Assembly (NCBI GenBank): GCA_014189435.1
Contig: CP050295.1
Location: forward strand, 558,001-622,000
Direction of reading: 5' to 3'
Length of the DNA: 64,000 bases
DNA from: Mesorhizobium loti
GTDB lineage: Bacteria > Pseudomonadota > Alphaproteobacteria > Rhizobiales > Rhizobiaceae
In this document: piece by piece, positions 33,682 through 39,631 of the stretch
How the letters are laid out: each line of letters opens with the position of its first letter
Position numbering within the stretch: position 1 is the stretch's first letter
The notes under the pieces: model-generated
What the model was told of the DNA's origin: nothing
What the model saw: the letters and a program-made list of their open reading frames with translations, nothing else
Database searches by the model: none
Program-made: the position numbers and the translations under genes

Positions 33682-34338
33682 TCAGTGATGTTGAGGGAGC
33701 GGGCGGATTACAAAACCGCGGTGATGCAGCGCTGGAATCAGGATGGATAGCGCCGTGACAGTCTGGTCACGCAGACTGGCGTAGGTGGCCGATTTCAACT
33801 CCTCGGGCCACCCGTCGTGCAAGAGCACAATTGCGCCCGGCCCAACACCGGTGAGCACCTCATCGACAATCGCGTCGACGCCAGGGCGAGCCCAGTCTCG
33901 CGGGTCAACTGACCAATGGACGCATGCCAATCCAGCGCGCGCCGACGTAGTGAGCACGTCCTCGGTCCAGACCCCATACGGCGCGCGCATGCGCCGCACC
34001 GTGGCCTCGGGACACGCCATCCTGATGGCGTTGCTTGCCTCGACTATTTCACGTTCGACTTCGCCGGGTTCGCATCTGGACAGGTCCGGATGAGTCATCG
34101 TGTGATTGGCTACCTCGTGCCCTTCTGCAATCATTCGTCGGATGAGTTCCGGCTGGTCTGCTGCGTGGGCACCGATGACGAAGAACGTCGCCGGCACCCG
34201 ATGTTGCGCCAACAAATCGAGGATCTGCGGTGTGCAAACTGGATTGGGCCCGTCGTCAAACGTCAAATAGACGCTGCGATCTTGAGTGCCGTCAGCGCAG
34301 TCACTGGGCACTTCGCACATGTAGTCCACATTTTTCAT
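33682..34338 (-). CDS. nodB: NodB: chitooligosaccharide deacetylase
   Basis: This is 218 residues starting MKNVDYMCEVPSDCADGTQD. NodB/polysaccharide deacetylase motif 1 is TFDDGPNP (Asp28, Asp29). The metal-binding histidines are in NHTMTHPDL (His79, His83), with RMRAPYG as motif 3 and HDGW near the end. It removes the acetyl group from the non-reducing end so that NodA can attach an acyl chain. The ATG overlaps the stop of the upstream nodA relic in the classical nodA-nodB ATGA arrangement, which fixes the start. Confidence 0.94.
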   Translation of the reverse strand: MKNVDYMCEVPSDCADGTQDRSVYLTFDDGPNPVCTPQILDLLAQHRVPATFFVIGAHAADQPELIRRMIAEGHEVANHTMTHPDLSRCEPGEVEREIVEASNAIRMACPEATVRRMRAPYGVWTEDVLTTSARAGLACVHWSVDPRDWARPGVDAIVDEVLTGVGPGAIVLLHDGWPEELKSATYASLRDQTVTALSILIPALHHRGFVIRPLPQHH

Positions 34339-34440
34339 AGGTTTGGAACGCTCCGATCGATCAGGGTGCCGGGCGGCCACTCGCCCATCGAGCATCGAAT
34401 TGGCGCAACATGGTTCGGCATCGCCTGCCAAACCGTGTCG
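34335..34440 (-). pseudogene. nodA: nodA 3' relic upstream of nodB
   Basis: The frame reads DTVWQAMPNHVAPIRCSMGE, then WPPGTLIDRSVPNL and a stop overlapping nodB. It is two joined pieces of the nodA C-terminus (compare RQAMRNHV and APIGRSMDEWPPGTLID in the intact copy at 38357-38947). About 127 N-terminal codons and about 47 more between the pieces are gone. It cannot make NodA. Confidence 0.85.
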
Positions 34441-34455
34441 GATGGAATGGAGAGG

Positions 34456-34775
34456 TTGTCGCGTCGTGTCGACGCGATGGACCTTGCACGGGTCACCGAA
34501 GAACCAAGCCGCAATCGACATGCGACTTGATTGATGTTGGGCGTATGCCGGAAGGCGTACACCAGAAAATGCTCCTCGGAGCCGAAAGTGCTCCTCGGAG
34601 CTAAGGCAAACATCGACAACGTTCCTTTAGGACTTCCTTGAATTCTCCCTATGCGACGTTCTGCAAAATCGGTAAAATCGTTTGTTTCGATCAGATGCAT
34701 CCACGCTTTGGATAGCTGATGACATGCGTTTTCAAACGGCTCGATGTAAATCTCCTCGTGGTGGACGACGCGCGC
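34456..34775. repeat. Duplicated nod-promoter region, partner at 38985-39300
   Basis: The two segments match over the leader, nod box and nodD start, for example CACCGAAGAACCAAGCCGCA at 34495 and 39044 and GAATTCTCCCTATGCGACGT in both. This copy carries an extra short duplication of TGCTCCTCGGAGC. With the nodA and nodB relics, it shows that a nodD-nod box-nodAB block was duplicated. Confidence 0.85.
34667..34713 (-). promoter_or_regulatory. nod box of the nodBCIJ(-H-PQ) unit
   Basis: The 47-bp minus-strand element begins ATCCAAAGCGTGGATG and ends with GATTTTACCGATT, close to the NodD consensus. It is 329 bp upstream of nodB because the nodA relic lies between. Divergent to it starts a nodD relic. 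Confidence 0.9.
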
Positions 34776-35320
34776 TCGGCGGGCGCGGCCTCACTGCCGC
34801 GGCAAGCCGAAGCATCGGATGACACGAGCCCTTTCGAACAATCATCGTGACTAGCCCGCCAGCTTGCGGCGCGCTATGGCGTCGCATTGTGTGGTCCAGC
34901 GCTATCGAGCTACGGGTAGCGCTCGGCCTGGGGTGGCCATCGCCGCAGCGTTCTGGAGCATCGGCGTTCATCATCATCATCGAGCGGATCGAGCAGACCT
35001 CGAATCTGACGCTGCATCGGCAGAAGCTGGCCGCACGCGGTATCTTAGTGTCCCGTAATGCGGTTTGGCAGTTTCTCAGGCGCGAGGGGGGAAGATGGGC
35101 CAGCTCATCCACACAACCACATCCACCGAATGCGCAAACCACCTCGCAAACGCTCGTGGGCATGCTTCTATCAAAATGCTCTAAGCCAAGCGGCCATGTC
35201 GTCGCGCGGCTGCACGATTCTTTCAACGATGAAATATTGCCATGAACAGCCGCGAACTTATTCTAATACCGCGTGCGGAAGCACTCGCCCCCTAAGTTCG
35301 TTAGAGTGGAGACCTCTCGC
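34724..35320 (+). pseudogene. nodD: nodD relic, copy 1, split by an IS630 fragment
   Basis: The ATG at 34724 starts ATGCGTTTTCAA; one extra T shifts the frame relative to MRF...LNLLVV of NodD. After an inserted IS630 fragment, NodD-like sequence resumes near 35185: LSQAAMSS, ARLHDSFNDEI, then MNSRELILIPRAEALAP. The recogniser helix region is disrupted and the whole effector domain is absent. No NodD protein can be made. Confidence 0.75.
34860..35085 (+). mobile_element. IS630-family transposase fragment inside the nodD relic
   Basis: The frame IERIEQTSNLTLHRQKLAAR, then GILVSRNAVWQFLRREG, is the N-terminal linker and second helix-turn-helix of IS630 transposases. No DDE region or inverted repeats are present. 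Confidence 0.65.
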
Positions 35321-35574
35321 GTGATGCCTACCCGCACTGTGGCCCATCTCCCGCGTAATCTCGGCCGCCACTACCTGCCGCTCTTGGCCATCAGGGCGGC
35401 CGACGGCCAAGGGTGATCACGCCGCTCTGCTGGGCTATCTGAAATCACGCATATTGCTGCCCCTTCGGTGATGCTGGATGAATCCCAGATCTTCGTGGCA
35501 GATAGCTGGTTGCGCAGGTCGCGGACCGTGACGCAAGGGCGTTTTGGAACAGGTAAGGTCCGGTCAGCCCGTGC

Positions 35575-38194: not shown

Positions 38195-38357
38195 GAGTTC
38201 CGGCCGATCGGCGGCGTAGGCTCTGATGACGAAGAAGGTCGCCGGCACCCGATGTGGCGCCAGCACACGACGGATCTGCGGTATGCAATGTGGGTTAGGC
38301 CAGTCCTCAAAGGTCGGCGTCAGCGCATCACCCGGCACTCACATGTGTAGTCCTGCT
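38195..38357 (-). pseudogene. nodB: nodB 5' relic between nodA and nodF
   Basis: On the minus strand the frame reads TFEDWPNPHCIPQIRRVLAP, then HRVPATFFVIRAYAADRPEL, clearly NodB (compare TFDDGPNPVCTPQILDLLAQ in the intact gene). The first catalytic Asp pair is changed to Glu-Asp and the gene ends before the His motif. It is the reciprocal counterpart of the nodA relic at 34335. Confidence 0.85.
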
Positions 38358-38947
38358 TACAATTCTGGACCGTTTCGGTCGATCAGGGTGCCGGGCGGCC
38401 ACTCGTCCATCGAGCGTCCAATTGGCGCAACGAAGACGATCACGTCCTCGACGCGGGTAGGCGGCATGTAGGGATGTATATTTGCGAGGGTGGACCGTAC
38501 CTCAACCCCCGACACAATGCTCGCCAGACCGCCGCGGCAGAACCTCTCAACGTGGTTCCGCATTGCCTGCCGAACCGTGCCGAACACAAATGGAACCCCC
38601 ATCCGCTGCAGCAATGGGTACACAACGCTCAGTGAAAAGCTGATTCCGAGTCCCTCAAGATCCGGACGGACCCCGTATAAGCCAATTTCGGCCACCAGTA
38701 GATCGACCTCGCCAACTTTGATGAAGCGGCGCAGTATGCCAATATGAGCCGCTATGCCGTGCGCGTCGTAACCGATTGCGCGGAATTCCGGCCTTGCACC
38801 GGCCCAGCTACGGCCGCCTTCGAATGGCTTTGCGAGGAAGGCCCCATGCCGTCCATAAGTCTTTAGAAAGAAATCGGAGAGTTCGACATGGTCGGCCAGT
38901 TGCAACTCATTTTCCCAGCACAACTTCCACCGTACGTCAGAGCCCAT
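38357..38947 (-). CDS. nodA: NodA: Nod factor N-acyltransferase
   Basis: This is 196 residues, the usual NodA length, starting MGSDVRWKLCWENELQLADH. AEIGLYGVRPDLEGLGISFS and EWPPGTLIDRNGPEL are typical NodA segments. NodA transfers the acyl chain from an ACP (such as NodF) to the deacetylated sugar end. It is the only intact nodA here and lies 4 kb from nodB, in a unit with nodF and nodE. The nod box lies 249 bp upstream. Confidence 0.94.
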   Translation of the reverse strand: MGSDVRWKLCWENELQLADHVELSDFFLKTYGRHGAFLAKPFEGGRSWAGARPEFRAIGYDAHGIAAHIGILRRFIKVGEVDLLVAEIGLYGVRPDLEGLGISFSLSVVYPLLQRMGVPFVFGTVRQAMRNHVERFCRGGLASIVSGVEVRSTLANIHPYMPPTRVEDVIVFVAPIGRSMDEWPPGTLIDRNGPEL

Positions 38948-39195
38948 GGAAATACCTCATCTTGATTGCTGTTTTTGAGATAAGCGCCTACGCATGGAGA
39001 GCTTGTCGCGTCGAGCTGACGCGATGGACCTTGCGCGGATCACCGAAGAACCAAGCCGCAACCGACATGCGAGTTGATTGATGTTTCGGCGTATGCCGGA
39101 AGGCGTACACCAGAAGATGCTCCTCGGAGCTAACGCAAACATCGACGATTTTCCTTTAGGGCTTCTTTGAATTCTCCCTATGCGACGTTCTCCAG

Positions 39196-39242
39196 AATCG
39201 GTAAAATCGTTTGTTTCGATTGACGGCATCCACGCTATGGAT
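39196..39242 (-). promoter_or_regulatory. nod box of the nodA-FE(G) unit
   Basis: The minus-strand element begins ATCCATAGCGTGGATG and ends with GATTTTACCGATTC. It is nearly the same as the nod box at 34667-34713 and faces nodA; a nodD relic starts on the other side. Confidence 0.9.
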
Positions 39243-39252
39243 AGCTAAAGAC

Positions 39253-39631
39253 ATGCGTTTCAAAGGGATTGACCTAAATCTCCTCGTTGTGCTCGACGCG
39301 CTGCTGGTGGAGCGCAGCCTCTCGGCGGCGGCCCGCCCCATCAACCTCAGTCAGCCGGCCATGAGTGCGGCCGTCGCCCCCGCTGCGCGATTTTTTCGGC
39401 GATGAACTGTTTACGACGAGCGGCCGCGAACGTTTTGTGACCCCGCGTGCGGCAGCACTTGCCCCCGCGGTTCGCGACGATCTCTGCACATCCAGTGCTC
39501 GATTATGGCTGTCCACCACAAGCAGCTGTCCGGCAGCTTACGTTCGAGAGATACATGTCGATGAGGCACGTCTCGGTCAGGTTCGGGCGTATTCTGAAGC
39601 CCTCCATCGAGGAATGGTTCTTGCTTGAACC
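39253..39631 (+). pseudogene. nodD: nodD relic, copy 2, frameshifted and internally deleted
   Basis: From 39253 the frame MRFKGIDLNLLVVLDALLVE is a good NodD start, followed by LSQPAMSAAVA. One extra base in the run GCCCCCG then shifts it; the other frame continues RDFFGDELFTTSGRERFVTP. A jump to QLTFERYMSMRHVSVRFGR and PSIEEWFLLE (C-terminal NodD) shows that the middle is deleted. It cannot bind flavonoid or activate nod boxes. Confidence 0.85.

What the first reader, a model, noticed from the sequence alone, without database searches (positions are those of the whole stretch)
34335..39631. Common nod region duplicated, then decayed reciprocally: nodBCIJ and nodA-FE split
Seen: copy 1 has nod box, nodA relic and intact nodB; copy 2 has nod box, intact nodA and a nodB relic, followed by nodF and nodE. 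The leaders and nod boxes are close copies. The usual nodABC order has been split so that acyl transfer is joined to acyl-chain synthesis, while backbone, export and sulfation genes are joined. I recall a nodA/nodBC split in Astragalus rhizobia, but did not verify it.
Basis: partly seen in the sequence, partly recalled or inferred. Interest (0 to 1): 0.75.

Follow-up and report, generated by a model that had tools for sequence, protein, structure and literature searches.

The report
Split nodulation operon from old duplication
In this nodule-forming bacterium the first nodulation-signal genes sit in two neighbouring operons, because an old duplicate carried one gene whole and the next only in part to the fatty-acid genes, and the leftover second copy of the whole gene was later lost.

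Summary
Confirmed. The window (a Mesorhizobium contig; near relatives are on plasmids) has two direct copies of a nodD–nod box–nodA–nodB segment. Copy 2 keeps nodA and a nodB stub and runs into nodF-E-G. Copy 1 keeps nodB and a deleted nodA and runs into nodC-I-J-H-P-Q. Both nod-box cores are exact; the genome has one intact nodA and one nodB.

The split is known from strain N33 (nodAFEG/nodBCIJ; titles only) and M. huakuii 7653R. Comparison corrects "reciprocal decay". The nodB stub ends at nodB nt 194-202 in 10 of 11 nodFE-linked loci measured, including genomes whose two nodA genes are both intact, so it was probably cut at birth. Copy 1's nodA was lost later, by a deletion shared by five of five close plasmids and unlike those in 7653R and R. 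sullae. Ten of 146 genomes keep both nodA genes in tandem; other lineages lost the nodFE-linked one.

Boldest result: 6 of 15 nodF leaders outside the window type, including Sinorhizobium meliloti and S. medicae, hold a nodB remnant beyond all controls, five ending at the same base. Many nodFE promoters may descend from one fusion. Against a simple history: nodA trees do not unite all nodFE-linked copies, and leaders recombined.

The parts
39253..39640 (+). nodD relic of copy 2 (divergent, frameshifted)
   Evidence: tblastn NodD 24-78 and 174-215 at 39311-39629; ATG at 39253; own-genome search hits with a TGA
39190..39242 (-). nod box of copy 2 (before nodA); exact core 39200-39220
38948..39189 (-). 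long leader of copy 2
   Evidence: blastn to copy 1; alignment
38357..38947 (-). nodA, intact, 196 aa
   Evidence: NF001974/TIGR04245, PF02474, only intact copy in the genome
38191..38353 (-). nodB stub (nodB nt 12-199, 136/189 identical)
   Evidence: nodF-upstream alignment
37803..38084 (-). nodF (acyl carrier protein, 93 aa)
36594..37802 (-). nodE (beta-ketoacyl-ACP synthase, 402 aa)
35575..36312 (-). nodG (3-ketoacyl-ACP reductase, 245 aa)
   Evidence: NF009547
34724..35300 (+). nodD relic of copy 1
   Evidence: blastn to copy 2; ATG at 34724
34661..34713 (-). nod box of copy 1 (before nodA relic/nodB); exact core 34671-34691
34447..34660 (-). leader of copy 1, joined directly to nodA fragments
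34335..34440 (-). nodA relic of copy 1: internal fragment + C-terminal fragment, reading frame open into the ATGA overlap with nodB
33682..34338 (-). nodB, intact, 218 aa
   Evidence: TIGR04243, PF01522, only NodB in the genome
32315..33667 (-). nodC, intact
   Evidence: TIGR04242
31169..32083 (-). nodI
   Evidence: TIGR01288
30377..31165 (-). nodJ
   Evidence: TIGR01291
29341..30087 (-). sulfotransferase, nodH by position
   Evidence: PF13469/PF00685; NCBIfam gave no hit
27783..28688 (-). nodP (CysD family)
   Evidence: NF009214/TIGR02039
25840..27780 (-). nodQ (CysN-like), 646 aa open
   Evidence: ORF; CysN annotated at the same place in strain 583, L084; not run against a family library

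Best explanation
A segment nodD–nod box–nodA–nodB(first ~195 nt) was duplicated (or brought in by single-crossover integration) so that its nodB end fused to the leader of nodF. This gave a direct repeat flanking nodFEG: nodD-nodA-nodB'-nodFEG-nodD-nodA-nodBCIJ. Shown: that layout with both nodA intact in other genomes, the stub with a common end, the window's matching order. Inferred: the fusion put nodFE under a flavonoid-induced nod box and made nodA redundant; lineages then lost one or other nodA. Here the nodBC-linked nodA was deleted, so NodA must come from the nodFEG operon while NodB/C/I/J/H come from the second, each behind its own exact nod box. The two leaders of this lineage were also homogenised (recombination or conversion). 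No NodA sequence mark of specialisation was found, so random resolution of redundancy is the likeliest reason for which copy was kept; co-expression of NodA with NodFE is possible but unproved.
For: Tandem layout with both nodA intact: 10 of 146 genus genomes by coordinates, 7 of those 10 fetched and seen. nodB stub end nt 194-202 in 10 of 11 loci, all 11 above 100 of 100 shuffles; alignment of 24 nodF-upstream regions. Tree of 50 nodA rows: nodFE-linked copies of the dual genomes plus 7653R form one clade (8 rows, 100/96), nodBC-linked copies of six of the seven fetched dual genomes another (100/100), so these paralogues predate those species' split. Window's deletion identical in 5 of 5 plasmids. 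7653R instead fuses the NodA N-terminus in frame to NodB; R. sullae has another internal deletion. Purifying selection: nodA dN/dS 0.28-0.34 to three relatives, nodB 0.34-0.40 to three.
Against: All 17 nodFE-labelled nodA as one clade is rejected (AU p 4e-5); without M. camelthorni p 0.129, so nodA has recombined or has more than one origin. The seventh dual genome's nodBC-linked nodA (M. tamadayense) falls elsewhere. The window's copy-2 leader is of the long, nodBC type while 7653R, tamadayense, camelthorni and others have a short one, and copies 1 and 2 of this lineage are sisters in leader+relic (100/98): this fits a later second duplication too. The copy-1 nodA fragments do not tell which nodA they came from (82% vs 83%). 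Window-AR07 nodA has 1 silent and 3 replacement changes, too few to show selection. The dual genomes G014, G032, G143 are near copies, so independent cases are fewer than ten.
Confidence: 0.75

Rival explanations
1. One reading: a recent duplication within this lineage of a complete nodD-nodABC region, followed by decay of nodB in one copy and nodA in the other.
For: Leaders and relic of the two copies are each other's closest relatives (100/98); 82% identity over 364 positions.
Against: The nodB stub end and the nodF leader behind it are shared with M. tamadayense, camelthorni, WSM3626, 7653R and the tandem genomes, which keep at least one intact nodA there; the whole order exists elsewhere.
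Confidence: 0.1
2. Hybrid origin: the nodA-nodB'-nodFEG block was acquired by transfer from another symbiosis plasmid or island and recombined beside a resident nodABC locus, whose nodA was then lost.
For: Window nodA groups with WSM3626, biserrulae strains, Microvirga lupini and R. sullae (99/97); R. sullae carries such a nodA beside a Rhizobium-type nodBC with a deleted nodA; a Loteae paper says nodA2+nodFEG was acquired in one ICESym lineage (PMC7643969, passages).
Against: Same block order and orientation in the tandem genomes; sister leaders within this lineage.
Confidence: 0.15
3. Functional selection: nodA was kept with nodFE because its product is adapted to the acyl chains that NodFE makes.
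For: NodA specificity for acyl chains is established (recalled; titles in PMC4619719's reference list); N33 Nod factors carry methyl-branched unsaturated chains (title).
Against: Across five dual genomes only NodA position 59 separates the two paralogues, and the window has the nodBC-type residue there; related lineages with nodFE kept the other nodA.
Confidence: 0.2

Closest known systems
Mesorhizobium (Rhizobium) sp. N33, nodBCIJ and nodAFEG regions (Cloutier et al. 1996, 1997)
   Same: Gene groupings nodBCIJ and nodAFEG as in the window; the 1997 title already says 'evidence of DNA rearrangements'; arctic Oxytropis host like AR02/AR07.
   Different: Only titles were seen (reference list of PMC4432818); I could not compare sequences or learn whether they described the stub and relic.
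M. huakuii 7653R, pMHa / pMhu7653Rb
   Same: nodA-nodFEG and nodD-nodBCIJH in the same order, each with a nod box.
   Different: Copy-1 nodA lost differently: NodA start fused in frame to NodB; short copy-2 leader; several IS between; nodD of copy 1 intact.
Tandem genomes such as G036, G005 (contig length equals M. australicum WSM2073) and M. tamadayense
   Same: nodD-nodA-nodF-nodE-nodG-nodD-nodA-nodBCIJ(H), stub between nodA and nodF.
   Different: Both nodA and both nodD intact.
Loteae L2 symbiosis islands, nodA2 + nodFEG (PMC7643969)
   Same: A second nodA with nodFEG.
   Different: nodA lies downstream of nodG there (L046, L117, L118) and nodB stands apart from nodACIJ.
Sinorhizobium meliloti / S. 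medicae nodFEG leader
   Same: nod box, then a nodB remnant ending at the same place, then a similar nodF leader.
   Different: nodA and the 5' part of nodB are absent; nodABC is elsewhere and whole.

Membership tests
N33-type split (nodAFEG + nodBCIJ) | intact nodA followed by nodF, nodE, nodG | tested here: met
N33-type split (nodAFEG + nodBCIJ) | nodB, C, I, J together without an intact nodA | tested here: met
N33-type split (nodAFEG + nodBCIJ) | sequence identity to the N33 regions | not testable with these tools
   N33 sequences not met in any search; papers not held (for related items)
nodFE operon built on a nodAB' fusion | nodB remnant ending near nodB nt 194 upstream of nodF | tested here: met
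   window: nt 12-199
nodFE operon built on a nodAB' fusion | all nodFE-linked nodA form one clade | tested here: not met
   AU p 4e-5 for 17 rows; p 0.129 for 16; hence I claim a shared junction, not a shared unbroken nodA history
functional nod boxes | conserved core with ATC-N9-GAT | tested here: met
   exact core twice; NodD binding and induction not testable

The most novel reading that the evidence does not exclude
One ancient fusion, nod box–nodA–nodB(1-~194)::nodFE, founded the flavonoid-inducible nodFE promoters of Mesorhizobium and of at least part of Sinorhizobium and Rhizobium, S. meliloti included. The window and its kin still keep nodA between box and nodF; the tandem genomes keep both nodA genes; S. 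meliloti, S. medicae, S. numidicum and R. sullae nodF leaders keep only the scar. nodA trees used for typing then mix two paralogues that different lineages lost in opposite ways.
Probability: 0.65. Interest if true: 0.62.

Novelty: new member of a known kind. Interest (0 to 1): 0.5.

Why it matters
The arrangement itself was known from N33 and 7653R. What the comparison adds is a way to order events: stub first, nodA loss later and in opposite directions in different lineages, with living genomes that still hold both copies. nodA is widely sequenced to define symbiovars (passages of PMC4619719), so hidden paralogy would matter for reading nodA trees. If the nodB scar in the S. meliloti nodF leader stands, it explains how the host-specificity genes nodFE came under the same control as the common nod genes, and gives a fixed landmark to follow.

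Tried and rejected
Rejected: (1) 'nodB decayed from a full copy' (stub end shared). (2) My own note that window NodA is 90% like M. temperatum's nodFE-linked relic but 81% like its intact nodA: with matched residues 1-74 the values are 90.5-91% and 89%, no real difference; dropped. Notebook entries 2 and 8 still carry this and '11 of 11' for the stub end; the right count is 10 of 11. (3) NodA specialisation with NodFE: one separating position only. (4) A first real-sequence control was spoiled by nodB genes inside the fragments; replaced, drawn from stretches away from nod genes that I chose by coordinates. (5) The shuffle routine could return shortened shuffles, so I rest. (6) Protein-level search for a Nod-factor role of the plasmid methylmalonyl-CoA mutase gene in papers gave nothing relevant. 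(7) Family search by TIGR04243.1 failed and was replaced by protein queries.

Choices that affect counts: between trees nine near-copies or outgroups were dropped, the Microvirga row was relabelled nodFE-type (stub downstream, no nodC, but no nodF seen either) and M. loti DSM 2626 unlabelled, after the first tree was seen; R. sullae's nodA is labelled nodFE-type by sequence though nodF lies 16 kb away. The NodE list was capped and I kept hits of at least 78% identity, leaving out one 78% hit (G118), so '60 genomes with a symbiotic NodE' is a lower bound.

Literature: ten searches. None was aimed at a nodB remnant in the nodF leader, so I do not claim that it is unpublished. PMC92101, the 1997 N33 paper, PMC95249 and the 2000 paper by DOI are not held.
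Full report
What is there. Both copies lie on the minus strand, 4.5 kb apart, as direct repeats. Copy 2: nodD relic (divergent), nod box 39190-39242, leader, intact nodA 38357-38947, nodB stub 38191-38353, nodF, nodE, nodG. Copy 1: nodD relic, nod box 34661-34713, leader, nodA relic 34335-34440, intact nodB 33682-34338, nodC, I, J, sulfotransferase, nodP, nodQ. The copies match 82% over 364 and 74% over 271 alignment positions. Both nod-box cores are exact. The genome has one intact nodA, one nodB, and four long nodD matches outside the window, three without internal stops.

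Age and course. Four plasmid records, M. huakuii 583, AR02, AR07 and AR10, have the same layout at 96.9-98.0% identity over the whole 5.3 kb (these four are the only records where one place covers at least 80%). They appear again as G017, G133, G134, G135 in the genus search, so they are not extra cases. All five, window included, share the copy-1 deletion. In all five the nodA frame of the relic stays open for at least 90 codons into the ATGA overlap with nodB; the inner deletion is exactly 40 codons. That the relic helps to start nodB translation is only a guess.

Beyond these, 146 genus genomes were searched: 101 have NodA, 101 NodB; 72 of 101 have an intact nodA abutting nodB and 29 do not, among them the five of this type, G040 and many with a lone nodB as in Loteae strains. 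At least 60 have a symbiotic-type NodE; 20 have an intact nodA within 1.5 kb upstream of it on the same strand; 11 of the 20 have a further nodA, ten of them in tandem 5.3-6.2 kb away; nine do not (five of this type, G007, G009, G034, G040). I fetched seven of the ten tandems; all seven show nodD-nodA-nodF-nodE-nodG-nodD-nodA-nodB-nodC-nodI-nodJ, the window's order with nothing lost. Other loci show the opposite outcome: intact nodABC plus a relic nodA (and nodB stub) before nodFE, as in M. temperatum (twice in tandem), caraganae, amorphae, silamurunense, albiziae and chickpea-type strains.

The stub. Between nodA and nodF, 11 loci were tested against six nodB genes: all 11 beat each of 100 shuffles; the match ends at nodB nt 194-202 in ten, and at 220 in 7653R, where the local alignment runs on. 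Since genomes with two intact nodA genes have it, the stub precedes nodA loss.

nodA loss happened more than once. 7653R: the NodA start is fused in frame to NodB, giving the 231-aa protein annotated nodB. R. sullae: a Rhizobium-type nodBC locus with an internally deleted nodA and a Mesorhizobium-type nodA elsewhere. The window type: leader joined to inner nodA, plus the 40-codon deletion.

Results that do not fit a simple tree. All 17 nodFE-labelled nodA as one clade is rejected (p 4e-5), mainly through M. camelthorni (p 0.129 without it). Leaders come in a long and a short type that cut across the nodFE-linked group, and the two leaders of the window lineage are sisters (100/98) inside a weaker group with WSM3626, biserrulae, R. 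sullae and Microvirga (84/89). So recombination between copies, or a second duplication of the leader, must have occurred. A matched comparison removed my earlier point that M. temperatum's relic is closer to the window's nodA.

Selection. Against AR07, AR02 and AR10 the nodA relic differs at 4-5 of 111 and the nodB stub at 4-7 of 169 positions, intact nodA at 4-7 of 591 and nodB at 5-7 of 657, the nod boxes at 0 and 1-2 of 55; but the copy-2 nodD relic differs at only 0-4 of 388, and against 583 almost nothing differs, nodB stub 2 and nodA relic 0.

Wider scar. Fifteen nodF leaders outside the window type were tested against eight nodB genes: nine are above all 300 shuffles, one is reached once, five fail (R. 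gallicum, CIAT 899, R. leguminosarum trifolii 23B, N. galegae, R. bangladeshense). Ten of the 15, without those five, were set against 6000 real fragments: six are reached by none (S. meliloti RCAM1750, S. medicae, Rhizobium T1473, S. numidicum, S. garamanticum, R. sullae); S. meliloti M270, Rhizobium 007, S. saheli and R. leguminosarum 248 are reached by 35, 18, 39 and 35. Of the six, five end at nodB nt 191-194, about 119 bases before nodF; S. medicae's local alignment runs to 235 though its sequence is nearly that of S. meliloti. The six fall into about two groups of similar sequences, so they are few independent witnesses.

How it works. NodC, NodB and NodA build the lipo-chitooligosaccharide and NodFE supply its special acyl chain (established). 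Here NodA must come from the nodFEG transcript and NodB, C, I, J, H from the other; both boxes look usable, so one flavonoid signal should induce both (inferred). No NodA residue pattern marks a nodFE-adapted form.

Known or new. The split is known: N33 titles in the reference list of PMC4432818; 7653R in passages of PMC4072884. nodA2 with nodFEG in Loteae islands is in passages of PMC7643969. The shared stub end, the opposite losses and the scar in S. meliloti were not met in my searches, none of which was aimed at the scar.

Noticed in passing
window 23955-25397 (-): A methylmalonyl-CoA mutase small-subunit gene (PF01642) lies next to nodPQ; it is 94% identical to a chromosomal copy and present at the same place in 583, AR02, AR07 and AR10. 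N33 Nod factors have methyl-branched acyl chains (title seen), so a supply of methylmalonyl-CoA for NodE is worth testing.
   Followed up: partly
window 34724-36312: nodG differs at 33-41 of 738 positions from four near relatives while nodE next to it differs at 7-11 of 1209; the nodD relic beside it is also high (19-22 of 575). Looks like a recombination tract.
   Followed up: no
L087 38059-38754 (M. huakuii 7653R): The protein annotated NodB is an in-frame fusion of the NodA N-terminus to NodB lacking its first residues; M. qingshengii G040 matches NodB only from residue 18.
   Followed up: yes
L087, pMHa 169302-178058: The paper gives 22 kb between nodA and nodBC in 7653R (passage); in record CP006582.2 the distance from nodA end to nodB start is 8.2 kb.
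   Followed up: no
L007 726-8054 (M. temperatum), L038, L039: The unit nodD-relic nodA-nodB stub-nodF-nodE is itself present twice in tandem before nodABC.
   Followed up: no
window 40026-42200 (-): AT3 acyltransferase fused to an SGNH domain just beyond copy 2; whole in 583 and AR02, in pieces in AR10's annotation. Might decorate the Nod factor.
   Followed up: no
L086 16411-19331 (AR10): Two IS5-family elements and other genes are inserted between the nodB leader and nodG.
   Followed up: no
window 7640-7660 and 9918-9938 (-): Two further nod-box-like sites with 2 and 3 mismatches.
   Followed up: no
window 42372-43080 (-): LuxR-type autoinducer-binding and HTH parts lie in separate ORFs, as annotated in 583 and AR10.
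   Followed up: no
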